Part shown: positions 3,922 through 61,804 of the stretch, piece by piece
How the letters are laid out: each line of letters starts with the position of its first letter
Numbering within the stretch: position 1 is the stretch's first letter
Assembly: GCA_019429005.1 (NCBI GenBank)
Contig: JAHYJR010000003.1
Location: 1-64,000 of the forward strand
Length of the DNA: 64,000 nucleotides
Direction of reading: 5' to 3'
Origin: Nanobdellati archaeon
GTDB taxonomy: Archaea > EX4484-52 > GLR71
Notes under the pieces: generated by a model
Told to the model about the DNA's origin: nothing
What the model saw: the letters and a program-made list of their open reading frames with translations, nothing else
Database searches by the model: none
Translations under genes and position numbers: made by a program

Positions 3922-3995
3922 AAAATATTAATTAAATTATTTATTTTAATGTTTTTTTTGATAACCTTTATAATAAATAAAAACAAAAATATATC

Positions 3996-11375: not shown

Positions 11376-11404
11376 ACATACCACATAAAAAGAGATACTT
11401 ATAA

Positions 11405-15687: not shown

Positions 15688-15691
15688 ATAT

Positions 15692-17740
15692 CTATACACC
15701 TAACTTAGTTAGATTTTCAGCAAGAGAATTGATATATATTTCGGCCATCCTAAATCTACCTTCTTTAAGTTTATCTCTTGCAAGTTTTAATTCAAGACGT
15801 ATATCTGAAACATCCTTACCTTTCTCTGAAAGGATATCAATCTTAATTTCAAGATTATCAAGTTTTGTAGTAAATTCTTTATACCTATTAAGATCTTCTT
15901 CAGGTATCCTATGTGGACTATGCATTGTAGGCCTGAAATTAACAAACCATGGTTTACCATCATTATATTTAGGATTCTGAACCATAGCAACCCCAATAGC
16001 TTGCCTTGATATCCTCTCAGCAAATTCACTACCATACTTGCTTTCAATTTTATTTATATCCTCTATACTCTTTGTATTAAGCTGTATTTCTGTAAGAATA
16101 TTACCTGCAACAGCCTCTTTGAAATCTGCAGAAACCTGAGAAACCATTATAAGACCAATTCCCCATTTACGGAATTCACGACAAGCTTTCTCAAGAGCAA
16201 CATATCCACCTTTACCACCATACTTTTCTAAAAGTCTATGAACTTCATCAAACACTAAGAACAATTTAAGATCTGCAGATTCTTCCCAAGTCTCCTTAAA
16301 TATTTTAGCAATAATTCTCATAACAGCTTGATCATACTCACCAGCTTTAAGCTTATCAAGATTAAATACAGTAATCTCACCAGGATTCATATATTTCTTG
16401 AAATCAACATCAACATCAGGTGTTTCAACATCATATATAAGTCCTTTAAATGGCCGTGCATCTGAAGGTTTCATATTAAAGTTAGAATATTTTGAAGTCA
16501 AATTTACATCTTTACAAGCCTTCACAAATCCAGTCCACTGACTTGTAGGATCAAACACAACAACAGGTATCTTCTTAAGAAGAGCTTCTTCAACAAATAC
16601 GCTCGCAGTAACACTCTTACCACTACCTGTACTCCCTGCAACAAGTATATGTGTTGTTATGTCAGTTGGATTAAACCAAGCTTTAATATTTGTCTCTGCA
16701 ACTTTTCCAATATCAAAATTAGTTTCAGATTTCATTGGAAGTTTAGTATAATCAACTGGGAAAACATACCTTGCTTTACTCTTCTTCTGTTTCTGATACC
16801 ATGTGTATATATACCATGTAAGCATTACAGTTGACAATAAGATAATCCAATATCCAACGATTCTGATTCTCATTGTATTCCAAAATGGTTTCATAATTGT
16901 AAATGCACTTGTAGCTGAAGCCATACGATTACCTTCATAAGTAATTATTGCTTCAACAAAATAATTGCCATTCTCTAACTCAAGCTCTTCAAGAGCTATA
17001 ATATTAATTGACGAATTTGACGAAATAACATTAAGATTTTCTGAAAAATTATAAACCATTTCAGAATTAAAATCTTTGATAAGATACAATACATCAACAT
17101 TAAAATTCTGCTTAAAACCTTTATTATATATAATTATTTGAGTCTTAAGAGTACTATCAACAGTCACTTCTTTAGGCATAACATCAAATACAACATCAAG
17201 GAATCCTGCACCACTATATGTTACAACAAGCCTAACAGGCATCCTCTTAACAAAACCATCACCATCTAAAAGAATATCTCCTGAATAGGTACCTATTTTG
17301 GTCTTATTGCTAACTTGTAAAAATGCCCTATTTGAAACAGTATCTCTTGATAACAATGACGTTTTAGCTAACTCAAACCGTATGAATGGTTTCAAATTAT
17401 CAGACACATCAAAAACAAACTCACCAATATCAAGATCCATATTATTTGTCACTTCAAATGGATATGTTCTAGATTCGCCTGGATATAATATTACATCATT
17501 CAAATCAGTCTCAACACTGAAAGGTCCTTCAACACAATCAATTTCACAATTATTTTCATTTTCACCAATATCACAGATATAATTACCACAATATGAAAAG
17601 ACACAATCTGAGAAACATGTGAATTCCTCACCAAATTCGCAAATACTATTACCACAGACAGCACAATCTTCAGCACAATTAAAACCATTCTCACCAGCAG
17701 TACAACTACCATCACCACACACATTAAGTGTTCCAGCTGT
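15692..17740 (-). other. C-terminal stem-TM-ATPase module of the giant protein, duplicated in the next gene
   Basis: From the three Cys knots ('CGDGSCTAGENGFNCAEDC' at about 17730) to the stop, this segment aligns residue by residue with the last ~680 aa of the 1,389-aa protein (11518-13570). The cytoplasmic part is nearly identical: 'KKIPVVVFDPTSQWTGFVKA', 'DEVHRLLEKYGGKGGY' and 'RRFRKWGIGL'-like stretches are shared with few substitutions. Conservation is much higher in the ATPase than in the stem, as expected for partners in a common oligomer or a recent duplication. Confidence 0.85.
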
Positions 17741-20700
17741 ACTTGCCCCACTAGTTGAAGGCATAACAGCTTGCTTAAAACAAGAACCACAATATTCAAC
17801 AGCAGCATATGCAGATGTCTGACTAGATACATAACTAATCTTATTATTAATCATATCAACATAACTTTCATTATCAACTGAAATAACTCCTGATTCTACA
17901 CTTTGTTTCTTTATCCAACCTGATGAACACACACCACTCTGAATATCCCAATTAGCACAACGATACATATCAATATTACCTTCGTAACTGATTGATTTTC
18001 CTGAATTTGAATAATCAAGAACAATTGTCATATTTGAAAAGATCATATCTGTATGCACAGATATGGATGAAAGAGCTCCAATCTCAGCTGTCCTTTCAGG
18101 TAAAGATAATATAGACGGATCAACATAACCAATAAAGAATGGTGACTCAACAGATGTTGTATTTATAAAACTTACATTACTAAATAATGCACTCCCATCA
18201 AAAGCACTAAGCTTAACATCATATAATCTCTGTCGCATAGTCTTATTATAAACCGCCGTAGAACTATTTTGTTCTAAACTTGAAAAATGATCAAGAACTA
18301 GATTTGTACCAGGTCTATAAAATACAAAATTAACAGCAATAGGAATAGCCGAGATATAACTATTTGCACCATAATCTGTACTATAACCATTAAATCTTAA
18401 TTCAGGATAAACATCAAAAATGCCCATCTCTTGAGACAAAAGACCATTAGTATCATTTGTAAAAAAGATAACATCGTAATCACCATAACCATATGTCTTA
18501 TCAAACATAGCATCCCAACTATTTCCTGAAGATACATTAAATTGAGGTATATTATATCTTACAGATGTAGGCTGGTATGATATATTAAGGTCATCAATCC
18601 AAACACTGCCTTCATTTGATGATACATTTAAAATTGCAGTACAGTTCCCAACAGATGTTAATGTACATGAATCAAGATATGCTTCTAATGCAGATGTTTC
18701 AAGTGCTATATCAATCTTACTAGTATTTGAAAATTCGCCATCATAAGACCATAATACGTTATCTGTACCAACAAGAGTTATTAAAATATTATCAGGAAAC
18801 GGTGGTCCACTAACAGCCTGAAGTGTCATTGTCATATTTCGTATCTGCACATATTTACGCATATCAAGATATACCATATGAGACGGTTGTGAATTAAAAT
18901 TAACTACAACTGGCGATGCATTCACAAAGTTTGTAATTGTCTCATTTGGCATAAGTGTCATATTAGGTGTTATATAATCTACATAAGCCCATACTGTATC
19001 AATACCAGCTTCATCTGTCACATTTATATCTAAAACGATAGTCTCATTTATATCTGCAGAAGATATATCTATATAAAGTATCTCAGGTTCATCTATATCT
19101 GGAACAACCTCAATTTGTATTGTTAGATTGTCCATACACCTTGATGCATTTTGACAAAATGTCCCTGTAGCATTAAAAAGAACAACTGCGGTATATGTTC
19201 CAAATGACTGATTCAAAGGAACGCCAACACTAACAGATACAACATCATCAAATCTCTTTGTTATGCTTGAGATAGATACAGGTTCATATGTTAAAGACCA
19301 GTTAATATCCATATTTCCAGATGCTTTTGAATATTCAATAACCCAAAGATCTTCATTACCAGTTGCTCCAATAGTTACATTAAAGATTTTTGTTTCACCA
19401 GGAACAAGAGATGCGGTTATATTTTTTGAAGATGGTACTAATAAACTTAATTCTGGACTTGACAATACAATAACATTAGTCAAATTAAATAATGATGGAC
19501 CTGGATATGTATTTGATTTTAACCATGAAATAATTCCTTTGATATCATGTGTATTTACAGTTGCATCAGCTGTAACATTAACTGTTAATACTTTATGACA
19601 TATTGAACCTGGCGCTATGTCACCACAACTTATCTTATAGTTATCAACAAACGTGAAATTATTTGGTACTAAAATTATGCCTTGAGTCGCATCAGGATCA
19701 TATGCACTACCATCACGATATACTATAATATCCGAATCAAACATTGTACCATTACCAATATTTTCAAGATCAAATGTTATATTAAATAGATATGTATTCA
19801 ATGTTGAAATTTCATTTACATATTCTCTATCAGGTGACTGATATAAAACATAATCTGTAGTTGTTATAATTGTTATGTTTGAAACAAACACATTATCTGC
19901 ATTAGGTCCATATACATCTACCGCATAAACACTAAGATCATATAATCCTTGAACCATATTATTGAACGGGTCAACAGGTAAATAAACTCCGCTATATTGA
20001 CCATCTTTAGTATTACCTGATATAAGAGTCAAATTAACTGTAACAAGATATGCACCTTTAGAAATTGTAGCATACGCATATGACATCATAACATCATCTG
20101 AAATGTTCGCAAGAATTGTAATATTATCCTTATTTACTTCAACTGAAATCTTATCAAGAGACGTACCATAAATAATTGGTGCAACAAGATCCTTTACATC
20201 CGTTGTATCGTTAACACTAATTACTGATGCATTATAATACAATGTTTGATTATCTCCTATTGAACACATCAATGTTGCAACACCAAGTTGTTCAGGTATC
20301 CAAGAGAATGTTGCATTACCATCTAAACCTGTTGTTTTTGAACCTACAATAACATATCCAGGTATTGTTGAATTATAATAATAAACAGATACAGGATAAT
20401 CTTGAACTGACATATTATTCGATGAATCTTTAACACCACATTTCACATTATTGACAACACCATAAACCATAGTGCTTGATATATTGAACACAGGTTCTGA
20501 TGTACCTATTACGACCATATCTGTCTGAAGTACATTTGAAAATCCATATAAATCTTTTGTCGCATTAAAATATATTGTATAATTACCAACTTCAGCATTA
20601 TCATCAATATTCCATAAGACATCACAATATGTCATTGAACCAGTTGAACAATTATCTATAAAATGTAAAGCAGACGTTGTCAAATTTTCATAATAAAATG

Positions 20701-23700
20701 CAACTACAGAATCTGTACCAATATCCCCAGTTTCTGTAGTAATATTCGCTGTGAAATTTACAGTATAAGGTGTAGCAAATGCATCATCACGATATATCAT
20801 ATCAGACTGTTTTGATAGATTGATATATACCTTACCTAAAACCCTTATCAATTTAAAATTTTCTTTTAGACTTGCAAAATAATATTGAGTCATATTATCT
20901 GTAATATTACACATGAATGTATGATTTCCAGCAGTCTCATTTGTTGCATTCCAAACAACATTTGCATAACCTAATGCATCTGTATAATTCATACCAACAT
21001 CAATTGATTCATAATTACCTGTGTCATTTTTCACAAAGAACATAACAGAATAATTAGCAAGCACTCTTGAATCATTTGCATCTGAGACTTTACAGGTAAC
21101 ATCAATTAAACCTCTTTGAATATCTACTGATGGTGAAACAACCTCAACTTTTGACCATCCATATAATGTAATATTTGTTGAATTTGTATCCTCAACATTA
21201 TAAGGTGCAACAACTTCAGCTGTAAGTGTATAATTGCCAGGCAACTCATTATCAGCAACATACCATAAATCATTCATATTTACAGTTGATAAGATTGTTT
21301 TTTCAATAACACCATTTGAAATATTCCAAGTTACAACAGGTGAAATTACAGAACCACAAGTATTATTGAACGTTGAATTAAGTGCCTGATTAAGACTCTT
21401 ATATATATTATAATCTGTAGCATTTGGATAATCAATAATAATAGATAACACATCAACAATATCAACATTATATGATGTAATATTTAATGGAATCTTTGGC
21501 GAATAAAACATATCTGAATTTGAAGTTATTGAAACATTCACAATATATGCACCAACTGAATCAGTACAATCTGTAGACCATGTAATATTACAGATTCCAG
21601 TTCCATTTGTTTTAGTGACTGTAACAGACTCACCGGGTATTTCCCAAATACAATTATAATCAGGTATTACAGAACTATTATGATAATCATAAACTTTAGC
21701 TGTAAATGTTATGTTATCCATTCTTGTTACATTAGTTGCATTAGATACAGTCTCAATTGCAGAATGTCCCCAAACATAAACTGAAACATTGTTAGATATA
21801 AATGGTGTCTCAATATTAATATTATCATAATAATCCTCAGTTGCGCTTACATTAATTATGTATGCTCCATGACTTTTTCCAACTGGAACTGTCCACCATG
21901 TATCAGCAGTATTTGTAAATAGACTTTCTTGACTACCTGTACCATTTAATTCAAATGTCCAATTAACGCCGGCAATATTTATCTCAGCCAAATTTTCATC
22001 AGTAACAGACGAATTCAAATAAACTAATTCATTCTTAAATATTATCAGACCATCTGCAATTCCAATTATATTAATCCCATATCGTCCATAAACATCAACA
22101 GATTCAGATGTTTCTCCTGCCATAAATATTGGCGTTCCTTCATATAACGCTAAATATTTCAATGTATATGTCCCAACTTCAGCAATATCCGTTATATTCC
22201 ACAAAACACCGCATGTACCATTTTCATTCGTTATACAACTATCAATTGTATGATTTTGTAAATCAGTAAGGTTAAAATAATAATATGTAACATTAGTATT
22301 ATTTAATGCAGTCGCATTATCATCAAAGACGGTAATATTTACAAAAGATTCAAACGGTGAATACAAATCATTTCTATAAATCTTTTTAGGATCTGAATCA
22401 AACTCAACTGTTACAAACTTTATTTCAGAATCAAAACTATTTTGATTTGGAAGTGCATGATAATAAAGAGTTGCATTATCTGTTATGTTACAAGTATAAT
22501 TGAATCGTGTTCCTTCAATTGCTGATGAATTCCATGAGGTATATGCAATACCGCTAGCATCTGTTACATTAGATGGCACTGTATCATTTGTAATATAAAA
22601 CTTAACAGGATAATCTTTAACTAAAATTGCAGGTGTCGGATTATCTAAAACATTACATTTGAAATCAATCATGCCTTTACTATAATATCCACTCTTTGGC
22701 TCAGAATTAGAATAACCTACTTCAACCCAACTATATACAGTCTTATTAGTTGAAACATAAGATGTGAAAAAACCATCAGATGCTAAACTAATATTTAGAC
22801 TCACATTTCCAACAATACTGATACTTCCAACAGGCCATGACAATGTAACTGTATCTCCACTTGTCACAGTAGAACTTTTAGGCGAACCATCAACATAAAG
22901 ATAATCATTTGTAACAATGCTTTCATCTAAAAGATTATTACAAGAATCTCTTAATACTACTGAAATTATTACAAGATCTTTCTTATGCACTTCAGGCCTT
23001 TCGATAATATCGGGATAACCATAAGGAGGATTTACAGAACCACTAGTTCTAGATGACCCTAGTATATCAAATGTAGATATTGTACCATTTATTATTGAAG
23101 TTATACCAGATATGATTAAATCTGAATCAACAGTAGGTTCTGGCGTATAAAATTTGCCAGCATCTTCAAATATTTCAACACCAATTGTATGATTTCCAAC
23201 AGTATCAACATCATCACCAGCACCTGGAACTGTATTACAATCAGTATACCACGTTACATTACAATAACCTGATGCATTCGTCTTATGGACTTCAGTCCGT
23301 CCATCAAGAGTCCATGAACAATTATAACCTTCAAGTCCTTCAGAATAATTATGGAAATTATATACTCTTGCGATAAATGTTAAATTATCAAGCTGATTAT
23401 ACGTCGAATAATTAACAGGCGCAATATATTCAATACCAGCTCGACCCCAAACAGAAACATTAAACATTGACCATGTGATAGAATTATTATCATCAGTATC
23501 ATCATAATACTGTTTTTGGGCTGTCAGATTAAGATAATATTCTCCAAGAGCCTGTGTCATATTAATTATTTGACTATCTAATACAATCGAAGTATTAAGG
23601 AACTCTATAACCTGTGACATAGATGTTCTATTTATAAGATTCCAAAAAATCCAATCTGGAGATGATTGAACAACAGCAAGACCATTTTCATCAATAATTG

Positions 23701-44700: not shown

Positions 44701-47700
44701 CAGATTCAATTATAGTTGAATTTAACCAATAATTATAATTATAATAAATTTCAGAATTTTGATTTGGACTATCTATAAATACCGTCAGATTATCTATAAC
44801 AGTAATATTACCCATAACATTATCATCAAAAATATCCCAGTATTTATAATATGTCTGATTCATATATGAAATATTCACAAGATATGAACCTACACCAATA
44901 GAACATCCATCAGACCATGTATAATTACAAACACTATCTGTCCCCGTTAACGTTGTACCAGTTGAATCAAATGGAGATATTTCCCAAGAACAATTATAAT
45001 CTGAAAGACCATACGCTGATACTGATAAATTAGCCTCATCATAAAGCTCAGCAAAAACATTAATATCGCCATCACGATAATATCCCATATCTTCAGAAGT
45101 CAAATTAAGATGAAGAATACCTTTAACTTCAACACTACCATATTCAATCTGTAATATATAAAACAATTTTGTTGCATCATATTGTATTGAAATATTTCCA
45201 ACTGAAGTATATATTGAAGGATTCCACAAGAAACTACAAGTACCCGTATTATCAGTTGTACAATTTCCAAGATATTCTGAATCAGCTGTATTTGTAAAAA
45301 CAACCGTTGTCTCATTAAGTATTTGTGATCGATTATCTGTAGCATTGACATTAAAAGTTACATTATACGGATAACCTTTTGAGATTGCATACGCATCATC
45401 ACGATAAATCAGATTATTATCCATTGAAATATTAATCAAAATTATTGTTGTAACAATAATACCCTGTTCACTATCATCAGTTTCATTAATACAGCCAAAA
45501 TCTGCGGGATAATCTACATAACCATCATCATCATCATCAAAACCATTATTACATTCTGGAGACCATTCACGCGTATCATTTGCATCATCACAACCCCATG
45601 TATCATTTATGAAATCCGCAACACCGTTACCATCATCATCAAAACCATTATTACATTCAGGAGACCATTCCCAAATATCATCTGCGGATGAACAACCATA
45701 AAAATCCTCAGGCCAATCTATAAGACCATTACCATCATTATCAATACCATCATTACATTGAGCGATAGCTTCACTTTCATGAAATGGATCATAAGAAGAT
45801 ATATTTGATGCATTAAAATCAGTATGACATTCCGGATCATCAATATCAGAAAAGGTATCAAAATCATTATCCCATGTATCATTACATTGCGGTGTCCCTG
45901 AACCAAAAGTGCCACCTTCATCATTATCATATTGATCTGTACAATCGGGATCAGCTGGAAGACCACTATTATTATTATTGTCCTGCCAATCCATAGTTCC
46001 ATCATTATCATTATCAATACCATCATTACATTGCGGAGTCACACCACCAGGGCCTGAACCATCACCACCACCGCCACCAGTACCAGAAGTTGAATTACCT
46101 GCACCACCCCATACTAAAAGATAAACCTCTGGAAAATCAAAAATCTGACACTGAATTACATTTTCAGTTCCACCTACAGGAGACCATAACCATGTTGCAA
46201 TACCTGCTGAATTTGTAACACTTACTCCAAGCACAATCCCATTATTCAAAAAAGTTACATTGTATCCACTAATATGCTCATTATTAATATAATCAAAAAC
46301 ATTACAGCTCAAAGTATAAGTAACATCTTCATATACATATTGAGGTAGTGATGTCGCACTAACACTTGCCCAACTCCACACAGTTATATTATAATATGTT
46401 TTAGAACTATTATATAATGGTCCTGCAGCCTCAACAGACCATGTCACATTACCCCTAGTCTGATAAGATGAACAATAACTACCAACACAACCCGTATTTC
46501 TATATTTTACATCAGATGAAAACATAGAATAATTACAATAACCATTAGAATCTGAAAGCACCTCTCGTGCAGGACCTTCAATTGATAAATTATTATCAGA
46601 ACTCATATTAGTTAAAAGTACTCTATAACGACAAGTCGCATTTTCAGGATATGTCTCTGTATAATTATCATAGATTCTAACAGATAACATAGAAGATATA
46701 TCATTTCTAAATATTTCGGAAGGTGCATCTAAATATGTAATCTCAGAATCATGAGATAATATTCTTGGATACCATTCATTTGACGGATTAGTAATTGTAT
46801 CATTTATCAAAACAAGATCATCATCAGTAAGATGCAAACCATCTGAACCAAACCAATCATGGAACCCATTACCGCCATCCGAATCATTTGTACCAGTAAC
46901 ATTATAATCAATATATGTCAGATTAAATGATATTGATTTTTCTTCACATAAATTATAATTATGCTTAGAATCACATGATGTACCAATCCAACTCTTATTT
47001 ACAGACACATTAAAAGTCACATAATCTATAACTGATGAATCAATTGTGATACTCTGTGATAAATAATTTCTGATACTAAATGTCAAGTTTACATAATCAT
47101 TCTCATAATCAGTAATATTATAAGAAACACTAAAATTCATTACACTATCATTCCAATAAAATTCAGATGGACTGACCGTAGTTGCTGTAATAACAGGTGG
47201 ATAATTATATCGACCGCCAATAGCATAAGTTACATTTTGATTTAATAAAATATCACCTGTAGCATTCCCGGTTCTAGGTTGTACAACCTTAACAAAATCA
47301 ATTACACCATTTCCATTCGTATCTTCTGAACAGATAAACCATGTGTTCAAATAATCAATATCCGACCAAGTACCACATGTTCTTATAGATGATTTAGCAC
47401 CACAACAAGAACCAGTAGGATTTTCCCAATAATCAATAAGATACACACAATTTGATTTGATATTACCTTTTTCAGGACCTTCAAGGCAAAGATAATCATT
47501 TACATCATGATCTACAACACCATACCTAGGCCCACTACTCCAACAATCAGTATAAACACTATCTGTACAACCCCATATACACGCACCCTCACCAATTGAA
47601 TACGCATTATCTGAACAAATATCACTCACAGTATTATAACGACCAACAGATTCATTTATTACTTGATAATTATAATATGTAGTAGTACTACTAGGATTGC

Positions 47701-50700: not shown

Positions 50701-52075
50701 TTCGCACCTTTCCTTTTAGTGTCCAACTAACAGGTTCACCAATAACAGCATTATTTTGAATAATATCAAGATCTTGAACATCAGGCGGAATTATTTGTAT
50801 TATTGTTGAAGAACCCAAACTTGATAAGGTATTCAAAGATTCGTTCCCAGCATAAAATGTTTTTATCGTATAAAGACCAGGACTTAAAGGTGATGTATTC
50901 CAAGATAATGTTGCAACACCAGACAAATTTGTATTGTTTATACCAAGAAGATGACTATCAACATAAAACTCTAATTTTTGGCTAGGTATTGGTGTTCCAT
51001 TCTCAAATGACAAGTTTGCCATTATTTTTGAAATTTCACCTTGAATTACTTTAACAGGATCAAGAATAACATCAGTTATCTGTGTAACAATAGGTGCAAT
51101 ATGTTCATTTGAAATTATAGTAACCATTATTTTTTCAAAATAAGCAGATAATGTATCAATTGCCTCATTACCATAATATGATAGATTAAAGAAATGTTCA
51201 CCTTCATCTAAAAGAGATGCATCAACCGAAATCAATATTGTACCATTATCATCTGTAGCATTCAGACCAATAAGAGTACCATTAGTATAAGCATACATTT
51301 CTTGATTAGGTATTGGTGTGTTGTTATCATACACTAATCTTGCTTTGATAAAAGCAAAACCATCTCTAAAAACAACTCCAGGTGTAATAATAACATCAAT
51401 AATACGAGATATAAATGATTTTATTTCAATCTCAACAACATCTGTAACATTTGTGCTATTATCCATCCCATCAATAGAAATAGACCCATTTGTAGTTTCA
51501 TTCAGATTATTTGTGATATTAACAAAAATTGTATCATTTACAATCAAAGTCCCATTAATAATCATTGTATCATTAATCTGAATAGTACCATTAATAAGAA
51601 TTGTATCATTGACTGAATCATCATCTGATGTCAAATTATCAGAAACATTAATAGATAAATCATCTGTACCATTAACAGTAACATTTAACTCAAAACTCTC
51701 ATTAAAAAGTATTGTATCGTTTAAAGTAGAATTTGAAAATGTCTCATTTTCAGAAATAGTTTCTAGAACAGTTGAATTCTCTTGACTCCCATTCAAAACA
51801 TCAGCAGTTGATGTATCATTTGAATCGGTTAAATTACTTGTAACATTGTCTAAATCAAAAGCCGTTTGATTATCGGACAAAATAGAAGACTCGTTAGAAA
51901 GTAAAACAGCATCTAAATCAGCAGTTTGATTAACGGACACAGATAAGTTCTCAGAATAAACAGTAGACATAGAAGAAATAAAAAACAAAAACATTATAGA
52001 TAACGCTAATAAAAACTTAAAATTTAAGTAAAAAGGCTCAAACCTAATACTATTTCTATTAACCTTATTATCCAT
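15692..52075 (-). CDS. Giant 12,127-aa surface protein fused to a cytoplasmic HerA/FtsK-like ATPase
   Basis: One uninterrupted 36.4-kb frame. Order by residue: signal peptide (about 20-43), Asn/Thr-rich low-complexity segment (45-215), two Ig-like domains (225-430), beta domains, a likely FG-GAP/VCBS-type propeller segment (about 935-1115), a Cys-rich region (1370-1600), Asp/Asn cluster 1 (2010-2206), Ig-like modules, Asp/Asn/Cys cluster 2 (about 3430-4045), ten ~550-aa super-repeats (about 4550-10500), membrane-proximal beta domains, three Cys knots (11450-11515), two more beta domains, TM helix (about 11738-11760), ATPase with Walker A 'GSTGSGKS' (11815-11822) and Walker B 'LFLVFDEVHRL' (about 11937), and a helical tail. 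Both Walker motifs look intact. I choose the ATG at 52075 over the TTG at 52078. HerA/FtsK ATPases usually form hexamers that move DNA or protein. Here the ATPase would sit under an enormous external fibre. Role (adhesion, host contact, ATP-driven remodelling) is inferred. Confidence 0.88.
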   Translation of the reverse strand: MDNKVNRNSIRFEPFYLNFKFLLALSIMFLFFISSMSTVYSENLSVSVNQTADLDAVLLSNESSILSDNQTAFDLDNVTSNLTDSNDTSTADVLNGSQENSTVLETISENETFSNSTLNDTILFNESFELNVTVNGTDDLSINVSDNLTSDDDSVNDTILINGTIQINDTMIINGTLIVNDTIFVNITNNLNETTNGSISIDGMDNSTNVTDVVEIEIKSFISRIIDVIITPGVVFRDGFAFIKARLVYDNNTPIPNQEMYAYTNGTLIGLNATDDNGTILISVDASLLDEGEHFFNLSYYGNEAIDTLSAYFEKIMVTIISNEHIAPIVTQITDVILDPVKVIQGEISKIMANLSFENGTPIPSQKLEFYVDSHLLGINNTNLSGVATLSWNTSPLSPGLYTIKTFYAGNESLNTLSSLGSSTIIQIIPPDVQDLDIIQNNAVIGEPVSWTLKGKVRKSKNISSDDLVPSEAIVTSETRDKVVKIQSMVASIITDEFEAIEIEYKTDAPYSLESDVESYQSGWTKNVTIASSVSMHYHDVQAFSDISEVRGNKISLYWFKDGQKIDVTENSIFNVTFVDTNENGLIDKMFWNVPQLSSQDFVIESTITVLNIQSYPLVGSNWTIYFDTTGSDILYIDNYNPEGIEFAGLYYYDNASEEWVVLNPTFDGENLSISWDYKHGKVLYYELMSGKHLVGFTYGNMTAYAKNLAWALGDSEVTQFSYALDPYTFGFNFTQVKNSYVVAYDNEAIYKDVNVTIPTNVVIINSSVSLSGEMAPKIISNGGDGLFWTKMLVGGKVNASSTLYDFFVSTLVDIRAFNSESTVGNVPIFKIDPGALEPIDFKLGNINLTDDNMELIVINSGDSNKGVDGYNMTCIVNLGPYDPIIPCRNFYYDPPGTDAGSSVFYYNFTDYGPSIIFGHEPGDGEELQLVNSSAERIWGKQFTSKVTDIKVDDINNDTYENIILSTGSVLRILNYTDGSEIETCTVSSSILSFDIGDLIHSLDGLEIIIGTSENLSLFNSTCDLIWTNYSDINNVHTNDNVISVSISEVDSFTPDDEEIIYLVENIIYELDSDGNLLYVREESLNGQIFYNMLVIDHLIESGNEIILSSDSNKKIYIYNFNNFPFQPRMDVEADGVDEWSYDGRLRYDVLEYNTTSSISNRLSTASISECPINETCNIIYSWFANYSGDKKGSIVIEDTTFNYTYNISEAAQSNMEAYWLWNGSFSRNISLNDSIAKNTIVIEGVPVYLDLIRVNQKYPAKALNITFENLSRVLFDVNVYDIQMGSGAVNCSINKDFYLNSQEKCDIEDFTVKSSGVNVTDLWNYSQFYFWDNSMPVEVVAWSNDTDYVKYREFAEKNVTIFRNPNGSTETQVFYNLMFTTSIDDNDTINIIDQPYIKLLNWDNVGNPATYYLNTTNIGLYTDQPSGVKGLDLTLFNQIGCSNPSFIPQKSFYTQKFCNPSSTTTYYNYQVINESVGRYNTVSDICSDNAYSIGEGACIWGCTDSVYTDCWSSGPRYGVVDHDVNDYLCLEGPEKGNIKSNCVYLIDYWENPTGSCCGAKSSIRTCGTWSDIDYLNTWFICSEDTNGNGVIDFVKVVQPRTGNATGDILLNQNVTYAIGGRYNYPPVITATTVSPSEFYWNDSVMNFSVSYNITDYENDYVNLTFSIRNYLSQSITIDSSVIDYVTFNVSVNKSWIGTSCDSKHNYNLCEEKSISFNLTYIDYNVTGTNDSDGGNGFHDWFGSDGLHLTDDDLVLINDTITNPSNEWYPRILSHDSEITYLDAPSEIFRNDISSMLSVRIYDNYTETYPENATCRYRVLLTNMSSDNNLSIEGPAREVLSDSNGYCNYSMFSSDVKYRNTGCVGSYCSSYQTRGNVTWSVEAAGPLYNSSKTYYNITVWSWASVSATSLPQYVYEDVTYTLSCNVFDYINNEHISGYNVTFLNNGIVLGVSVTNSAGIATWLWSPVGGTENVIQCQIFDFPEVYLLVWGGAGNSTSGTGGGGGDGSGPGGVTPQCNDGIDNDNDGTMDWQDNNNNSGLPADPDCTDQYDNDEGGTFGSGTPQCNDTWDNDFDTFSDIDDPECHTDFNASNISSYDPFHESEAIAQCNDGIDNDGNGLIDWPEDFYGCSSADDIWEWSPECNNGFDDDGNGVADFINDTWGCDDANDTREWSPECNNGFDDDDDGYVDYPADFGCINETDDSEQGIIVTTIILINISMDNNLIYRDDAYAISKGYPYNVTFNVNATDNRSQILNETTVVFTNTADSEYLGNCTTDNTGTCSFLWNPSIYTSVGNISIQYDATKLFYILQIEYGSVEVKGILHLNLTSEDMGYYRDGDINVFAELYDEANLSVSAYGLSDYNCSWEISPFDSTGTTLTGTDSVCNYTWSDGCSIGVGSYLVNISYMNQTYYKYWDIFDDNVMGNITVIDNLTVFIDSPNQNSEIYYNYNYWLNSTIIESVCSFDVTNDYQVSWIYADNFSNNGVIVDFGSSYANYSWVADISGRGPINITANVNGTYYPGLFTNMTQLMLYRFSNVGGMLINPSEVTRNDVIGVYCEVTDLNQSVIVPSGYNVDFYVDNTYEYTNISNLTSFAIWSWDTTGYYGGWHNVSCLINNTRQAPYYYNVSSGSNSTIGVVATQLNISKLEIGSPWIYRTDIIPYQTYIDIYVNTTDEEGYSVFVEGAIVSIYGPTGSCGNGQYINETVDHCNCTTDSVGYCSIDFNANDTIFPKLYDFYVNASRPLWISSQTVTASLDIKGSIFANIINPVSDGDIRYKGLSHYLNSSVTTDAGVPLLDSEVNVTWKNSLNVTIGSIINSTWSIPVGTVPFNETISIYVNKTGFVPIVLERYVEIYGWVAVNVTEISPAPDVDDVLPRDIINITCMVYDDNTTTGISGYQVNISDNNGTVDTLIATLFTNSSGYVNYTWNSYFVNLGSHNITCTILENKTLNYNVSFSPSKRYINFTDNNPPIITIHSPINATYTTPLVLLNFSVNEYVDWCGYSLDGAANITIPDCNVTNMTAIYDVGQHTVTVYVNDSESNVGNSTVFFSIDVGVEKNRVFYEDGTTINLTLDAGVPGLDLFANFSLIDSDYGPSHNESYYDAGGGIYYLTYTISDDATNTRSDGGYTIFINSSDGRLRNATLHLNNDWSTWDEISNAFKCTGDIPYKYFMEESCLKNDYDFAFKKYSGTYTEFECNDASLLEKDYLNGLYYPTDGLDCDDADCAGIVYSCPPGSNGDRTKDGGQFVSFGFMDMVFGLLSLTPTCSGGVCQATIDGIQDTKVYYTENVALGGNLTVRFVGPVGNCGSSDNRTVQFMLGVGTQPLPSGLVLPGGSNVFINNLSESSSFTPYVIELGTSEVTFLVATDNVSYCGNLDMTMNIIIPNETGLIGIHTIAVSRDLQIDLTNQINLTIEIGTTATGMLYEHNITDGCRDRTALNQYQEDNDLDYLVDCADPDCWDPGCSGADCVDYRGFSDISLSNSSDYGQGLCQPAETTCYDLVDNDYFNVSGADCQDINCDMRQGNYTDTLHLCEYRQELNCTDGFNNDQYQLKDCDLVATADRFTDPVYGFLQGTGNAEYDCQVECRTLGIVPSQEIGENCTDNIDNDMDYFQMQPGSSYSSGVRNMSIGAGIDCRYNNYDADCNMTAINDSHSPIPFGDCQLLWEMNCTDGFDNDQDWGVANIHFAGYSNLNGSDCDDYNCRGLGSCPVTESCDFACASSGANTCYDFIDNDLDAYNTNGTIKNVTVGAGIDCNWIANDYDSDCHLSYVNVTGSVFRCEIGTELNCTDGYDNDFDLANLTRNKPNYTANYGGLDAADCDDYDCAGATYLNGSYICSNNPYTLFESVCNDTTDNDLDYYFDCADSDCIGSMGPQGVVCAFNEYPEYCRDGGDNDGNDPDADSIYEVGKNGTDCEDPNCHKQFGLCNVCPEFENVSVDACSDGIDNDFDRTFDVDLKDCKESECNGFAGPDGKVCEFNIELSCDDGVDNDDNGFIDCLDDACAGTPSCPSDEYGPNMCVDNVDNDDTPESPGTDADCSDATNDCDLTIHCQTNDVIFKWESTASKVYIDYDYVVRRGENWTIRFTNKTEMVSSVSFSVGIAASPLPADFNVNGANSVKSVLTGPSASEFTKGISTGIFFAESTSYPSTQALDLTYNIELPITDAIVDNSFYTFKIAGNIDGAEEMFISVYVLENNKPIINNISFVSRMAESGALYGPDVTVKVNTSDNVLYNSGIHHCEFKLNTTGWYTYSTVDVRDCEFTFTGLSVGSYNLSVRSVDGAYNINETSMVFDVLIPPILQGFYNITDLEYPGRVRYDDDENITINVNFTSSVSTFSASPTGCLVKFNNISTGVSQLTSTIALSVPVAGKAVCSGEINISSLPRNSGRYDITVEVNDTLLSTGITDAQEFWSCPIFFDSYVGRYRCMTACEDQEPPVIENVSVELDPIFRGSNQTIYATVYDDGIGLGGSIEAGWPKLFVKEADDLGNVYLHEYPYTTTDGAGNYTWNVSINVTELPGVWYYKIEAKDTIGVYTKTDPYNFTVIGRIYITIDSPVNPWDIYHRTETVSLNSTVTDENGVIFDDSDVTLNWFNITNAMINTSINASWALDNLFVLGANSVNATGNKTFYATNSSVKNIWIYGWSGINQTAPYNSTKTRSNIDVICHVSDLNSSENIQDYPVMFWETNSSGTTVYLGSTLTDSSGNSTFTWDTTSHNVGTYIITCNITDNATVYYNVSIPETSYNITLTGLLNVNVTSSESVVYRYNSGVPNETIFEANVTDVFSDNLVSGANVSFYYNSTENSTLYYLGNCMSVDGLCNISWNPADDIYPANYSIYFNATRQYFNDSSTDYIPLKIKGLLIINMTSEGNIYYRGLPSLIEGGLVDAGGVSVTGYPLSGFNCSWIINSTITSSLTDINGTCNMTWNSDCTHILGNYETNLSLTATGSEFWDIFDDNDVENISLIDNLTIIIDSPLNNSIYHKDDDINLFSTVKDSCGFPSNSHSIKWYISADIKTVEDTVYSVFWYDYQTLPVTIKVSDPVNAFYPNQVQNITYIDIYRYTEIKNISFNPASEFVPGSIVNVSCLIQFNDTAINSQVNIDPLYDVSFYLDDVLQSVEKANLSEYAMWQWDTTSVGGGEHEVKCNITDSVLLYYNASYLYEQNSTTMAVTGLNVTNIIFDQDPIVRNDSYSPHEVQISSKVVTSDSGVPVLNAVVHIYLPSGNCTDIDGNVNEINSTNKVCDCITDLSGDCYIKYNATEDILPNNYTVYINATKTSWSDSLTETYILGIWGNLETNITNVYETQIFHRGSNESLQSYTVNESDGNITDDVTLTWVWTPSVTSDQSGSGTLWEILNDYQLGPIMIEALAEKTYYVFDIEARNVFVYGWSNVTLVEPAYDVHNRNETLLIKCNVTDQNTTDVVSNLYPVQFTEDNGTVENVLGTNYTVNGIAMYSWNTTEINPGEYTLRCKILDNDTLYYHATDVWNVSSKSINMSGFLSVSAYPELLWIYRNDSFVNYNTTFVANVLDDNNNPVNLVTVTFLNYTGDVVGTCLTNTTGGCVMTPAWNPSDTYVPGLYNITYYAYKTFYENSIYHNLTVEVRGKYKVSLSSEDILYRGENYWFNGTITSENGDELTSGLYLNWTIINQTGSGVTLILNTSNITDTATIDNAQNIGSYWLNVSVIKSYYDDINTYDVPVTSINKSVDVYGRAVVEIISQSDTSILRTDNVTFIARVYNYYDASDNVSDYVCNWRNDEGDQFNSTTNNLGLCNYTWDSGCSYVVGMHDLNVTIYTNSTLYYSPKAGGYESDNTTVALNGTLNITMDKPEVSGVPKEIVYRYDYVTLNSTVRDECSQIILGTTVNWTSTNITSNVEIIDGAGTTLTYWDLSSPSYHKIGLFNVNATVNKTYYVSGNDTQNVLIYGWSKINLVLPLSDSYQRTELNISCNVKDNHSSENITNYPVYFWDSIDNGLTYAPIDTIYSNLTDAYGNAIYIWNTSMSIVGDHRLKCNITDNATLFYNETEMNESVVDITLIGDLYINITSLINSVFYRNDTFNPYFANITVRAFDENDANIMSANISFQYSDDNDSLSMIYFANCTTDATGKCNIIWNASDTMTPDDYYIFYNGSHPFFNNSLIENTTVQIRGMYHIDNIFYPLDDYSGTEKYNNRVYKDETHYFRSILSFENGTQFSASESPLYMNWWIFNNATSEYTNISVIVNDTSLKLFDVSNHSLGNHYIYVNTTKEYYDEMPTYLDTASKNKSVVIFGRSVVNITVAPTLVIRGTDALFTAFVYDYYNDTGIADYNCTWQTSEGDVFVNKTNATGYCHYTWSTDCADNATIQNVTVLIGEELSLFYNPLQDISLNTSNTSLEVRGDIDSYIISPNAMIDMPLQKDTIVPVSVQVFECGRQIDDVGVNVTLWDGSTYVEWWNYSSVGVSGEYNTTKYIDISHALGNFTIHVTSGRTYYTTNWTSVDVSIWGWSNITFISPLSEIYFRNDTINLICYVDDVSNSSGLENYFVTFIDNNGTDTSTIGTNFTNSSGYATFLWNASESSASPHNVTCNITDNSTQYYTAYQVESNKAMLDLRGYTFITLFKSESHIYRNDSFYPNFTELYVVVIDELGLFLNNSFVSFSYYNGTDNIFIDNCLSNETGNCAVIMDVPDDISPSDYIISYNATNLPQYQPVQKNNTIEVRGKIKLNITYPTYRIFRNETSDLNMTFITENGEYINLTDNTEWLIVNGTDLSETHITNTTFLNSSLTMPYHVLGNHILKIRVEKEFYDSIDTNDSVTIYNNSIEVWGRLLIEYNSSVSTTDERGDVVQFAVRVHNKYDSPQIDVDYNCIWARDDVGGTSSVSVNNGICYYNWTTDCSTWVGGHDLNATIYDNATLFYAVDTVTANYRSFTNDLRGNISKIDILIPNSSMYPLHKNDTVSLIANITDECGYYIPDNTHLGDVAINWTLERPSFFEVVNDTGNGTDSWYIKQSHDLGNFTLFANVSHSYYGNNFTSIGDVQIFGRSDVSFINPFEGNITKYDRSSIVNLTCNVTDRDTNALLNGYQVKFWDNFTNVSGTFVTLINTTQTSVGIAYYEWNISTIPTGDHIVTCNISDYPLINYTAFKTEAETTINLKGFLFVDCVNQTVSKDWVYRMGDSISYSCNVSDENQMPIKDATIWLYTPGAPGVVQSGLTAVDGKVIFGWDPDNTINPSSYTLYYNATRGVNYYNSITKNVTSRVLGKINATIISPLPASSYYKGDPVSLNMTMVLDNGTVVDESFVTSILWYLNGDMANVIGNSQNTTWNVWNNLTNLQDVEVYAFKDSYYFDITSNPTHENIHDSVSIGIWGKSAVEFIAPLPTEKFARGLNITYIARVYDADNITGIYNYTCNWTFNGMNNITFTNESGFCNITWNTMCPVVDISSDSDTIGNHIASIVIPNETYMYYTTDLGNSTNNTNLNLTAPLNITIVQPNMTAFFKTETMFLETIIVDECMDTVVGSQVQWNLERTGFDSVINNSENGTYLIPNDHKLGQFDLNVTTQLVNYNMSYDFKPVEVWGWSFVNLSNITNPKYPLENPQQFEKSLINITCDVKDANMTDPVNVTYPVEFWYTFNYTDYFIASDNTSLSGVTSAVFDARYVPGGIYTIKCNISDYTDVYYNTTIDFEMIQDIVILGVLNVSYNISDNKIYRNDTFTPSQTVLFANVTDEDWPINGTNVTYYYNTSSNSQIYIDSCITNESGVCPVSVIWNPSDTIEPFNYSVIVIVTKPLFDYDTKYEKVETRGRFNFTITQPSINLRLYQNDSYMFNTSILSENGDVLYVLNDTKWYVNSTLLENGNTYDATNVTVPYNQTLGESIFKVDMLKEYYDSLGSPSIDNDDYLVSKEIPVEVWGYSVVEFYPGQNNSIYPLDSSSILYGVQVYNYYNNTKFISGFDCEFNITESVTPILINETMGSSFCYYTWDTDCTNNDYNNIGPNDVIVKIYETPSLFYTPRSGYETSQIVTTLNGSLNVFFKASDGPYVDASVTRIVHRDDTVNLFVSVEDQCGDDLLIASPSVVNWSLVPEPSVGTLNISGDGLSDVWNINPDFFEIKNYTLRANGTQQYYVSDYDDLEISVWGYSDVTIVEPVLNVSKTYERSELNISCYVNDANVTNPALLDLEGYPVNITYSLITATINESGFINYSVTDSDGYFNFTWDTLNIKGGLYTIYCNITDNSTLNYTASRVVSSVQLNMTASMEVDLQNVTETMIYRNDTLPASGPYSTKFISKVIDVGSSVDGATIEYWYNDTNDVFQLIGTCITNITGYCTNPVVWNPVATIVPNNYNIRYKATHTLTTYENSSEYFTNVLVKGKIQINITSPYPNEVVFRQYPLDLTWFNVTVTDENGNFVYDTQNNWSIVNVSLGLITPLIDTLSQNISVVVPYHSLYDNVVNLTVWKQYYEFMGSNASVLDANVTVDVWAKSVVDIVQEYDSRERGENITYIAKVSDKFNASLLILGYNCTWDYDGQQKLTPTNASGYCNVTWLTGCSNPGAGADEGDNQSIGQHTTKVNISSTSMLNYEPNAPNDNNDETYTNLTGALDVTIVEPSYYLIQRNDSTSLISEVRDECGNTVSASVVNWDIYNQTTSIWYESVGSLQNDTWNVTYNHNLGNYTMNVTSSKDLYNSTMSSKIIAVFGWANVTLNLPQSASYVRNTTILMSCNVLDLNTSQNIESYPVEFLNMDKYSSTYSIIGTNVTNLTGDAIFSWDTSLYNAGSHYVACRIADNYTLYYTAPINTSNNITLDLKGKLYINITDIEYPVIYRNDSFSPFTTNITFNITDELNMTISNATVTLNYTLPSWSPMEKSIGVCNTTDISSGLCEILFNINDLESPENYTIIASAENLDYTSQSDVFESIIVKAKTDIIVIAYPNGSTDNYYGMRLYRNETHNFTIDILDENSVGFMNATSINWTILNFTDLSDVTSISNTTDISIDDSLSKTQDLGQYWLNATVEKIYYDDIITNESVSSINMTVEVWGRAAVNIINSYTSKYRGDSDIIYIAKVYNYNSVSDDGLSDYNCTWRTDDGVEVVTVTNSSGYCNFTWITNCSNWATGDNWVGNHIINVTIYEDAPKYYTPEVSEYSKQTNLILRDTLNVTILSPNASIYELNKDTTVLMDLNITDSCDTLVYSNSYRSTDPVVNWTVYRNGWTDLSVENGNGTDLWYINGTYPIGNFTLNATAMHPYYDTHSYEIYNMPIWGWSVINLTSPIVDMLFDRNNTIPIYCNVTDNHTNESISEYPVYFWDSLPGFYDYTNLSVSNVNLTNGSGLAVYYWNASQVQVGEHIVKCNITSNSTLNFTSWAPRAEATQGIDLRGQLYSVAESQEAMIYRNDSFIPFKTMLNVTVTDENTNLVVNSTVAFYYTNLTSLQNITIGLCNTTVAVPGYCNITWNISYNAEPGDYQIYYNTTAAYFKPAVIGNFVVQVKAKFNASIITPVFDQRLYRDIIYPLNATIIDENGLAVVQSSPDWIFWNLINRTSMSQVIEFLNTSIVLDSQIINMTQALGEYYLNLTAQKQYYDDTDDNNSITWSMFNVSVWGRAGIEYIAPVNYSTYNQLDNLTFIARVYNFHNYSEGLEGYNCSWTLDGRTEVHKTNASGYCNVTWYTDCNTVPGAGDDVDTVGNHTIGVEIFEDAGKFYTPEPTVDSDLIISGITSIINGTISTFDILGSSRTSGSVNPPYGYPDIIERPEVHKKDLVIISVVLRDSCNNLLDESIVTNDYLYVDGSPKSSTVTSGDTVTLSWPVGSISIVGNVSLNISLASDGFFTSYVSTNKTVYSWVEVGYSNSEPKSGYYSKGMIDFKCNVLDNPTPAILVKDYPVKFYITNDTVPSNVTDASGIAYTSWNSSAIEGTRFNYTCNITDNATLYYHALPNQNSFDSEIKFVTVEFDSDPKKIYRNDLYSPFESFVNITVFDDNATALNNTNVTYYYFNLTDLQNHTIDSCITNENGTCGVLWNITDIAEVGTYTLKYLALYEGTPIFMAGETSESVDVYGRYGINIIGIADGLIIFKNELVYLNSSVTDENLAEINIAGVNWTFELNGTGSQESLFTNTADTWWTVPVGKSHGAYIINVSATEDYYDNINIETPFISNNVSVYVWGHSAIETVSNATNVTRMDNITFTAKVYDYHNSSVIPDYNCIWEIPGESVTVTKTNGTGICNITWSTDCTDSVGAYIVNVSITSNSDMFYSPKIPLNITSYNVDIVDVLSIIIDYPNATDYNIYKSLNQALNSTFNNTCGSVISPVVTWNISNGVIEKTILSTVNMNDLWYVADNELPGNYTLTAEVVAPYNVEDTNSTNITLYGWSKVEVVSPSVDIQRGLIDVTCKVSDANDSRVLANYSVMFFVKNDTGNYESIDVGMNYTDALGYANVVWNATNETAGNHTFMCNITDNMTQYYFASLKENFKLIRVLGKVYINLSKQSDMIYRDDAFATPYTVNFTANITTETGDIGTDSVVAFYYENLTTSALHFIDNCSTGSMTYCDVLWNIDDNAEVGNYTIYFNATKDLYGFSNVLQTDMVVIGTSEPVFNISSTMVYGVVNNVKCGVKDSSNNMSVQDYPVSVYYYNSTIPGYVIVGSKTTGLDGNATFSWIPEQLGVATLMCSIGDNQTLYYNASVISVNDTTDVKDLVAPIIYGTSLDKISVEVNKDNITILANISDDVMMSYAYATISKGAYLVTVNLTLISGNTKDGQYSGVYLPVDPFNNMVQGLYDLSVYAVDVYGPNADNVFVSNITIITTTDYVLYQSPDREYVNEISTLNTYLFNITFDLENIGNGTMFDSDIIVYRDGSAYDPDATQGIILVPNNFTFVDNYKISCGDIAPGSICHKVLTVNVTADATVNTHDIKGIISWLKSNTYPGPSLFNLTNVIVLSSPELSLLVPSSKNITASLVPGETKIFNVTIGATGNEDLWVIEYSKASGNMDINWSLTYEPVSISSITKRFDDVVSVSVGVPLNQSFGTYTAVVLFNATGTFCQNASRCMDNLTIQIEVVPDIDEPEILYIDISSADINETIVLDINVTDEAGIDTVWAYVDYITPNMTLMPNETITNFVNASPVVVNFNSQPSHMVYLDMRKYVQIRNMTMTLQAVSGPPFPDNILITLVGTDNVLWSYDGEFSNTSKIDIALETSALEAYLDSCTLTSVGNCTAILNVSSNEGSVWIDDLNISYQPTSVRYNIPQFNVSSGNSWDAMFDKTYGYGDYDVIFFTNDTNGLLSQEMGIFDVYPELRFNGYSTDYGANSYISAIPIAVNFVFYRPGTNLVLDHFSSLEQNSSTAVYNKTMRQRLYDVKLSAFDGSALFSNVSFINTTSVESPFFIGYVDPSILSLPERTAEIGALSSISVHTDMIFSNMTIVLDYSNSGKSISYEGNIDMYRCANWDIQSGVCSSGWIKKQSVESGVISVDNESYVDMINNKISYVSSQTSAYAAVEYCGSCFKQAVMPSTSGASTAGTLNVCGDGSCTAGENGFNCAEDCAVCGNSICEFGEEFTCFSDCVFSYCGNYICDIGENENNCEIDCVEGPFSVETDLNDVILYPGESRTYPFEVTNNMDLDIGEFVFDVSDNLKPFIRFELAKTSLLSRDTVSNRAFLQVSNKTKIGTYSGDILLDGDGFVKRMPVRLVVTYSGAGFLDVVFDVMPKEVTVDSTLKTQIIIYNKGFKQNFNVDVLYLIKDFNSEMVYNFSENLNVISSNSSINIIALEELELENGNYFVEAIITYEGNRMASATSAFTIMKPFWNTMRIRIVGYWIILLSTVMLTWYIYTWYQKQKKSKARYVFPVDYTKLPMKSETNFDIGKVAETNIKAWFNPTDITTHILVAGSTGSGKSVTASVFVEEALLKKIPVVVFDPTSQWTGFVKACKDVNLTSKYSNFNMKPSDARPFKGLIYDVETPDVDVDFKKYMNPGEITVFNLDKLKAGEYDQAVMRIIAKIFKETWEESADLKLFLVFDEVHRLLEKYGGKGGYVALEKACREFRKWGIGLIMVSQVSADFKEAVAGNILTEIQLNTKSIEDINKIESKYGSEFAERISRQAIGVAMVQNPKYNDGKPWFVNFRPTMHSPHRIPEEDLNRYKEFTTKLDNLEIKIDILSEKGKDVSDIRLELKLARDKLKEGRFRMAEIYINSLAENLTKLGV
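20500..38450 (-). repeat. Array of about ten ~550-aa super-repeats (about 50 Ig-like modules)
   Basis: A 'Y/W-GWS' motif marks the start of each unit and recurs at about 38170, 35950, 34350, 32690, 31080, 29480, 27800, 26130, 24460, 22720 and 21150, mostly 1.6-1.7 kb apart. Each unit has five modules of about 105-110 aa in fixed order: A (GWS, then 'CNITDN' near the end), B (starting 'IYRNDSF', with a CxTNxTGxC pair), C ('RNE' and 'LG-YLNV-K-YYD'), D ('RG', 'FIARVYNY', 'YNCTW' and a second Cys pair), E ('LNVTI-SPN', 'DECG', 'GNFTL'). The first spacing (2.2 kb) is longer and carries extra modules. Sequence between units is well diverged, so the array is old rather than a recent expansion. Confidence 0.85.
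39920..41800 (-). repeat. Asp/Asn/Cys cluster 2: twelve calcium-type repeats in the giant protein
   Basis: I count twelve copies of a CxDxxDNDxD...DCxDxxC pattern, for example 'CTDGYDNDFD', 'CNDTTDNDLDYYFDCADSDC' and 'CDDGVDNDDNGFIDCLDDAC'. The Asp/Asn spacing resembles MopE-type and thrombospondin type-3-like metal-binding repeats, with an added Cys pair per unit. Calcium binding and disulfides are inferred. A related degenerate stretch and an inserted beta domain lie just upstream (41800-42660). Confidence 0.8.
45460..46060 (-). repeat. Asp/Asn cluster 1: five calcium-type repeats in the giant protein
   Basis: Five units of 'CNDGIDNDNDG...C' type occur, including 'CNDGIDNDGNGLIDWPEDFYGC' shortened variants such as 'CNNGFDDDGNGVADF' and 'CNNGFDDDDDGYVDYP'. 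They follow a Gly/Ser-rich linker ('GGGGGDGSGPGG'). The units have fewer cysteines than cluster 2. They probably form a rigid calcium-dependent spacer. Confidence 0.8.
48740..49270 (-). other. Probable FG-GAP/VCBS-like beta-propeller segment of the giant protein
   Basis: Motifs such as 'DIKVDDINNDTYENIILSTG', 'FDIGDLIHSLDGLEIIIGT' and 'DVEADGVDEWSYDG' match the 'D-NGD---DI' loop pattern of integrin-like FG-GAP repeats. These fold as propellers and often bind calcium or ligands. The segment is near the distal (N-terminal) end of the fibre, where a binding domain would be expected. The fold assignment is by eye. Confidence 0.55.
51430..51945 (-). repeat. Asn/Thr/Asp-rich low-complexity N-terminal region of the giant protein
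   Basis: About 170 residues just after the signal peptide consist largely of Asn, Thr, Ser, Asp and Ile/Val. Short quasi-repeats such as 'NDTILING', 'INDTMIING' and 'VNDTIFVN' occur. Almost every few residues form an N-x-S/T sequon, suggesting a heavily glycosylated, extended distal tip. Confidence 0.7.
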
Positions 52076-61754: not shown

Positions 61755-61804
61755 AAATAGGGCGTTTAAGCCCTAAAAAATAAAATAAGGTTAAAAACCT
61801 TATT
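61755..61804 (-). terminator. Double hairpin terminator of the S-layer gene
   Basis: The first hairpin, ATAAGGTT-TTT-AACCTTAT (61785-61803), overlaps the S-layer stop codon and is followed by TTATTTTTT. The second, AGGGC-TTAAAC-GCCCT (61759-61774), is followed by ATTTATTTTTT. Two in series suit a very strongly expressed gene. Confidence 0.75.

What the first reader, a model, noticed from the sequence alone, without database searches (positions are those of the whole stretch)
15692..52075. A 12,127-aa surface fibre fused to a HerA/FtsK-class motor in one polypeptide
The sequence shows one open frame with signal peptide, about 11,700 exterior residues, one TM helix, and an ATPase with both Walker motifs intact. 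HerA/FtsK-class ATPases normally act as cytoplasmic or membrane pumps on DNA or protein, and giant adhesins normally end in a passive anchor. A motor directly under a fibre of roughly 100 Ig-like modules is unusual. If modules are about 4 nm each, the fibre could span some hundreds of nanometres, comparable to a small archaeal cell (inference). If the ATPase hexamerises, six fibres would emerge together. This is my main candidate for a new system, possibly for host contact, uptake or ATP-driven surface rearrangement.
Basis: partly seen in the sequence, partly recalled or inferred. Interest (0 to 1): 0.95.

Follow-up and report, generated by a model that had tools for sequence, protein, structure and literature searches.

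The report
Giant DPANN surface fibre on HerA motor
This tiny parasitic-type archaeon makes one enormous surface protein whose far end is an ATP-driven motor inside the cell; such "SPEARE" proteins are already known from related host-dependent archaea, but this one is the longest found here and its gene neighbours suggest the motor works as a three-part machine.

Summary
In detail: 15692-52075 (-) is one intact frame of 12,127 aa with signal peptide, about 11,700 exterior residues (669 glycosylation sequons against 218 expected), one TM helix and a HerA-type ATPase with every catalytic motif intact. It is not a new system. The ATPase head is 48-50% identical to those of the published nanohaloarchaeal "SPEARE" giants (identified here by length, mass and pI), and Reva et al. 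2023 already described signal peptide + ~75 Ig domains + TM + VirB4/TraG-like ATPase with a second ATPase gene downstream. 48 of 393 sampled archaeal genomes carry the family; the window protein is the longest seen. Three things go beyond what I found published. (1) The gene after the ATPase(s) encodes a conserved coiled-coil protein, found in no control genome without the family. (2) In nanohaloarchaea the ATPase heads of giant and short partner evolve in concert while their ectodomains do not, which suggests mixed rings; fibres per ring need not be six. (3) The head is nearest HerA, and VirB4-N and VirB6/TrbL domains were not detected, so the type IV secretion label is not supported. Best guess: a host-contact-anchored, HerA-driven translocase; substrate and direction unknown.

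The parts
15692..52075 (-). Giant SPEARE-type protein, 12,127 aa (calc. 1.35 MDa, pI 4.1)
51953..52075 (-). Signal peptide region, residues 1-41 (cleavage near ...TVYS/EN inferred)
45506..46018 (-). First Asp/Cys-rich 'CNDGxDNDGD' block (residues ~2020-2190), tandem repeats at DNA level
40241..41758 (-). Second Asp/Cys-rich block (residues ~3440-3945)
20231..38272 (-). Array of Ig/macroglobulin-like beta-sandwich units (~110 aa each) in ~550-aa five-domain super-repeats, residues 4602-10615
16862..17719 (-). Cys-rich module and two membrane-proximal Ig-like domains (WxLIP-like fold), residues 11453-11738
16805..16861 (-). Single transmembrane helix
15695..16804 (-). Cytoplasmic HerA-type ATPase head plus C-terminal helical hairpin; no HAS barrel seen
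16613..16636 (-). Walker A GSTGSGKS
16238..16264 (-). Walker B LFLVFDEVH
16154..16180 (-). REFRKWGIG, aligns with HerA REGRKFGVG (candidate trans-arginine motif)
11518..15699 (-). Short paralogue, 1,393 aa: signal peptide, ~950-aa ectodomain with the same Cys-rich module, TM, HerA head (78% identical head); start overlaps the giant's stop
9669..11384 (-). Coiled-coil protein, 571 aa, no TM; conserved third gene of the operon

Best explanation
A giant cell-surface protein of the SPEARE kind, from a DPANN archaeon. Shown by sequence: signal peptide, glycosylation-rich exterior of repeated Ig/macroglobulin-like domains, one TM, and an intact HerA-family ATPase in the cytoplasm, encoded in an operon giant -> short paralogue with the same head -> coiled-coil protein. 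Inferred mechanism: the fibre reaches and binds a partner cell. Under the membrane the heads of the giant and of the short paralogue assemble into one HerA-type hexameric ring, so that only some positions carry a long fibre, and the coiled-coil protein scaffolds or gates this ring. ATP hydrolysis then moves a substrate (protein or DNA) across the contact site. By analogy with HerA-FtsK motors whose membrane side is N-terminal (VirB4, TrwB, EccC), outward movement is more likely than inward, but this was not tested.
For: Homology to known SPEARE giants: head 48-50% identical to giants of 8,880, 9,409 and 8,553 aa whose length, mass and pI fit BNXNv_0298 and SVXNc_0300, and whose length fits SG9 SPEARE 1 (PMC10266531, PMC6642349). 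Ig repeats of the window are also recognised in those giants. HerA fold: 4d2i Z 26.0 against VirB4 23.6, TrwB 19.4, FtsK 18.5; all solved sequence relatives below E=1e-6 are HerA/DUF87 proteins. Motor constraint: catalytic residues invariant in 37/37. Operon: coiled-coil gene directly downstream of the ATPase gene(s) in about 31 of 36 loci with downstream DNA; in 11/11 family-bearing genomes tested and 0/10 without the family. Mixed ring: in nanohaloarchaea the ectodomain+TM tree separates giants (100/99) from short partners (96/97), while heads pair within genomes (98/93, 95/100; 97% identity in one genome) and 'giant heads as one clade' is rejected, p-AU 0.00075.
Against: No transport, DNA binding, hexamer or host contact was measured. 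One TM per subunit would give only six helices per ring, a narrow pore, and no universal polytopic channel partner was found. Concerted evolution could arise from gene conversion without co-assembly; two of the four nanohaloarchaeal pairs are unresolved, and in the window's own lineage the ectodomain stems also pair, so an independent duplication there is possible. CedB and CedD, the nearest archaeal precedent of two partner ATPases, formed homo-oligomers and no stable hetero-oligomer when their TM was deleted (PMC11868833).
Confidence: 0.5

Rival explanations
1. Type IV secretion 'straw' as proposed by Reva et al. 2023: the giant is a component of a T4SS and its VirB4-like ATPase injects effectors through a channel into the host.
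For: Published proposal, with cryo-ET bridges of 9-11 nm and host methylation changes in the SVXNc system. The head folds like VirB4 too (4ag6 Z 23.6).
Against: VirB4 N-terminal domain PF03135 and VirB6/TrbL PF04610: 0 of 17 genomes searched (14 of them family-bearing), with controls ringing. PF03135 is not found in the BNXNv, SVXNc and SG9 short partners even at E up to 5; their N-terminus reads as an Ig ectodomain. HerA families outscore AAA_10/TraG models.
Confidence: 0.15
2. DNA import motor: the fibre captures a host or DNA and the HerA ring pulls DNA in as nucleotide source, as CedB/CedD do in Sulfolobales and as Hamm et al. 2019 speculated.
For: Best NCBIfam match of the head is CedD (E 6e-15, but 55 bits against a cut-off of 600); CedD is a TM-HerA ATPase needed for DNA import only. 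The window genome shows no AIRC (PurE) and no ATCase/OTCase, so nucleotide dependence is plausible.
Against: The CedD match is restricted to the RecA core. No CedA-like channel identified. Several family-bearing genomes do have ATCase/OTCase. Direction is untested.
Confidence: 0.15
3. The ATPase serves the fibre itself: it drives export, anchoring, clustering or retraction of the giant ectodomain and transports nothing else.
For: The motor is covalently fused to the fibre; ectodomain length varies from a few hundred to ~11,700 aa above a constant head.
Against: A signal peptide implies ordinary Sec export; the head is equally conserved in short partners that carry almost no fibre.
Confidence: 0.12
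4. Assembly artefact or chimeric ORF.
For: MAG sequence; no reads available.
Against: Comparable giants (7,378-11,262 aa) with the same head in many independent assemblies, three on single-contig genomes; uniform composition and sequon enrichment.
Confidence: 0.02

Closest known systems
Giant SPEARE-type proteins SVXNc_0300 (9,409 aa), BNXNv_0298 (8,880 aa), SG9 SPEARE 1 (8,553 aa)
   Same: Signal peptide, long Ig-repeat ectodomain, one TM, same ATPase family at 48-50% identity, C-terminal helices, second same-family ATPase gene overlapping or abutting downstream, then the coiled-coil gene
   Different: Longer (12,127 aa); no laminin-G domain found, whereas BNXNv has one (E 1.8e-23); Asp/Cys-rich blocks; short partner has a large ectodomain (1,393 aa in all against 623-677 aa frames)
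HerA DNA translocase (SsHerA 4d2i)
   Same: RecA-like core, Walker A/B, RxxRK and SQ motifs; best structural match Z 26.0
   Different: No HAS barrel seen; a TM and giant ectodomain take its place; no adjacent NurA noticed
CedB/CedD of Sulfolobales
   Same: TM plus C-terminal HerA/VirB4-like ATPase; two different partner ATPases
   Different: No surface fibre, VirB4-like NTD in CedB/CedD, CedA channel; the window head scores far below the CedD cut-off
VirB4 / type IV secretion ATPases
   Same: Same superfamily and fold (Z 23.6)
   Different: VirB4 N-terminal domain and VirB6/TrbL not detected in 17 genomes

Membership tests
Giant SPEARE-type proteins (as redefined by Reva et al. 2023) | Signal peptide and very long extracytoplasmic region | tested here: met
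Giant SPEARE-type proteins (as redefined by Reva et al. 2023) | Tandem Ig-like domains forming the bulk | tested here: met
   63 units, also recognised in BNXNv/SVXNc/SG9 giants; model pLDDT 83.5 all-beta
Giant SPEARE-type proteins (as redefined by Reva et al. 2023) | TM near C-terminus followed by a homologous cytoplasmic ATPase | tested here: met
   48-50% identity
Giant SPEARE-type proteins (as redefined by Reva et al. 2023) | Second ATPase gene of the same family immediately downstream | tested here: met
SPEARE as first defined (Hamm et al. 2019) | Laminin-G domain in the ectodomain | tested here: not met
   no Pfam LamG at E<=0.01 in the window giant; positive control BNXNv E 1.8e-23
SPEARE as first defined (Hamm et al. 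2019) | Serine protease domain | tested here: not met
   no protease family at E<=0.01; Reva et al. dispute it for the others too
SPEARE as first defined (Hamm et al. 2019) | Cytoplasmic 'type III restriction enzyme' match | tested here: met
   ResIII PF04851 matches 35/37 heads, but DUF87/HerA matches 37/37 better: it is the HerA P-loop, not a nuclease
HerA-FtsK superfamily, HerA clade | DUF87/HerA_C profiles over cut-off and HerA fold | tested here: met
HerA-FtsK superfamily, HerA clade | N-terminal HAS barrel | tested here: inconclusive
   none seen in the model: the TM helix directly precedes the core
HerA-FtsK superfamily, HerA clade | Hexameric ring | not testable with these tools
   only monomer prediction available
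Type IV secretion system | VirB4 N-terminal domain (PF03135) | tested here: not met
Type IV secretion system | VirB6/TrbL channel (PF04610) | tested here: not met
   0/17 genomes by profile; a diverged channel is not excluded

The most novel reading that the evidence does not exclude
A host-contact translocase distinct from type IV secretion, widespread in DPANN-type archaea: a mixed HerA ring built from fibre-bearing and fibre-poor subunits whose heads are kept alike by gene conversion, plus a dedicated coiled-coil partner.
Probability: 0.35. Interest if true: 0.8.

Novelty: new member of a known kind. Interest (0 to 1): 0.5.

Why it matters
How host-dependent archaea exchange material with their hosts is open, and these giant proteins are the leading suspects. 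The window extends the family beyond salt-loving nanohaloarchaea with the longest member seen here. It also supplies a third conserved gene and a testable assembly model (mixed ring, few fibres) that can be examined in culturable nanohaloarchaeal co-cultures.

Tried and rejected
Tandem Repeats Finder sees only small arrays, because protein repeats are too diverged at DNA level. Two-unit repeat alignment A3 aligned badly and was replaced by the 550-aa super-repeat alignment A4. The polytopic membrane protein 53242-54288 was considered as the missing channel: it occurs only in the same order and not in nanohaloarchaea or several other family-bearing genomes, so it is not a universal partner. A link of the coiled-coil protein to archaellum FlaC was considered: only 2 of 14 members match, at best 1e-3, among many generic coiled-coil families. 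Complement/macroglobulin-like structural hits of the super-repeat are taken as fold only; there is no thioester motif. Classical HerA genes (L058-L062) were a negative control: no coiled-coil gene was found next to any of the five, though two of them have little downstream DNA.

Full report
OBSERVATION. The minus-strand frame 15692-52075 is real and unbroken: ATG at 52075, stop at 15692-15694, 12,127 aa, no ambiguous bases. The N-terminus has a signal peptide, the only convincing internal TM is at residues 11739-11757, and glycosylation sequons mark the topology: 669 in the ectodomain against 218 +/- 13 in shuffles, none in excess in the cytoplasmic part. The calculated mass is 1.35 MDa, pI 4.1.

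ECTODOMAIN. Pfam recognises it only weakly (Big_3_5, Big_1, MG2, MG4 below curated cut-offs). An HMM grown from one internal unit finds 63 units of ~110 aa, not about 100. From residue 4602 to 10615 they are arranged as five-domain super-repeats of ~550 aa; adjacent super-repeats mostly align over ~500 residues at 30-37% identity, with conserved cysteines. A super-repeat models as consecutive beta-sandwiches (pLDDT 83.5) whose best Foldseek matches are macroglobulin-domain arrays of complement C3/C5 and alpha-2-macroglobulin, at low TM-scores, so this is a fold resemblance only. Asp/Cys-rich 'CxDGxDND' blocks lie at ~2020-2190 and ~3440-3945; other parts are unassigned.

HEAD. The last 690 residues model well (pLDDT 84.5): Cys-rich module, two Ig-like domains, TM helix, ATPase core, C-terminal helices. 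Sequence profiles (DUF87, HerA_C in 37/37 relatives), solved sequence relatives and structure (SsHerA Z 26.0, VirB4 23.6, TrwB 19.4, FtsK 18.5) all put it nearest HerA. The Walker A, Walker B, REFRKWG and SQ residues are invariant in 37 of 37, so the motor is very probably active (inference).

WHAT IT IS. A literature search led to SPEARE proteins (Hamm et al. 2019, PMC6642349) and to Reva et al. 2023 (PMC10266531), who re-described them as signal peptide, ~75 Ig domains, TM, VirB4/TraG-like ATPase and C-terminal coiled coil, with a second ATPase gene directly downstream. Three single-contig genomes in the collection carry giants matching the published ones: G050, 8,880 aa, 974,512 Da, pI 4.11 (published 974,524 Da, 4.11); G069, 9,409 aa, 1,030,748 Da, pI 4.05 (published 1,030,728 Da, 4.03); G067, 8,553 aa by a TTG start (published 8,553; length only). 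The window head is 48-50% identical to theirs. The window is therefore a SPEARE-type giant. Hamm's 'type III restriction' domain is explained here too: ResIII matches 35/37 heads through the shared P-loop. Two original SPEARE features, laminin-G and serine protease, were not found in the window giant, while BNXNv shows laminin-G.

DISTRIBUTION. At E<=1e-40 the family is in 48 of 393 sampled genomes, with frames from a few hundred to over 10,000 aa; the window protein is the longest, next to frames of 11,262, 10,914 and 10,846 aa.

THIRD GENE. Directly downstream of the ATPase gene or gene pair lies a coiled-coil protein (window 9669-11384) with a conserved core 'EKLEG...ERI..LSE.IGELRSM...RE'. 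It was found in about 31 of 36 loci with downstream DNA (counted by hand; most gaps under 100 bp). A whole-genome control argues against generic coiled-coil attraction: hits in 11 of 11 family-bearing genomes tested and in 0 of 10 without the family, with one hit (G012:C20) not beside a detected ATPase. I found no mention of it in the papers read.

PAIRED ATPASES. The window has a short paralogue (11518-15699) overlapping the giant's stop. Across the family the pairs look duplicated lineage by lineage. In nanohaloarchaea this can be resolved: ectodomain stems and TMs form a giant clade (100/99) and a short-partner clade (96/97), while ATPase heads pair within genomes for BNXNv (98/93) and G063 (95/100, 97% amino-acid identity), and a tree with all giant heads together is rejected (p-AU 0.00075). 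The SVXNc and SG9 pairs are unresolved. Third codon positions within pairs are not near-identical (59-69%), so conversion is not recent. The simplest reading is concerted evolution of heads that sit in one ring; this is inference. In the window lineage the stems pair as well, so an independent duplication there is possible.

SECRETION CLAIM. Reva et al. called this part of a type IV secretion system, partly on a PF03135 match in the second ATPase. I could not reproduce it: PF03135 and PF04610 are absent at E<=0.01 from 17 genomes, and PF03135 is not in the three nanohaloarchaeal short partners at E up to 5. Different software could explain part of this; a diverged channel remains possible.

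MECHANISM AND DIRECTION. I favour a contact-anchored translocase with a mixed HerA ring (confidence 0.5 for the whole statement; near 0.93 that it is a SPEARE-type protein). DNA import, modelled on CedD and compatible with missing PurE and ATCase/OTCase in the window genome, and a purely fibre-serving motor are live rivals.

Noticed in passing
window 53242-60617 (-): A 2,110-aa TIG-repeat surface protein with signal peptide, C-terminal TM and short tail overlaps a 348-aa polytopic membrane protein; a similar adhesin/membrane-protein pair lies just downstream of the ATPase and coiled-coil genes in G033, and the membrane protein is linked in G027 and G018.
   Followed up: partly
window 54285-54700 (-): The cytoplasmic tail of the TIG protein carries a run of 'VAHGA' repeats rich in histidine.
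   Followed up: no
window 61800-63998 (-): S-layer-type protein (TIGR01564) beside a MinD-like ATPase (60763-61470), upstream of the giant on the same strand.
   Followed up: no
L074 800-1813: In G033 a DUF1016-like nuclease-type ORF (assignment from memory) sits between the ATPase and the coiled-coil gene.
   Followed up: no
L077 5394-7313: A coiled-coil homologue in G012 without a detected ATPase neighbour, next to a signal-peptide surface protein.
   Followed up: partly
window 2074-3888 (+): Membrane-anchored protein with two thioredoxin-like halves, an exported disulfide candidate that could serve the cysteine-rich ectodomains.
   Followed up: no
window genome G000: No match to AIRC (PurE) or to aspartate/ornithine carbamoyltransferase, consistent with nucleotide dependence.
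   Followed up: partly
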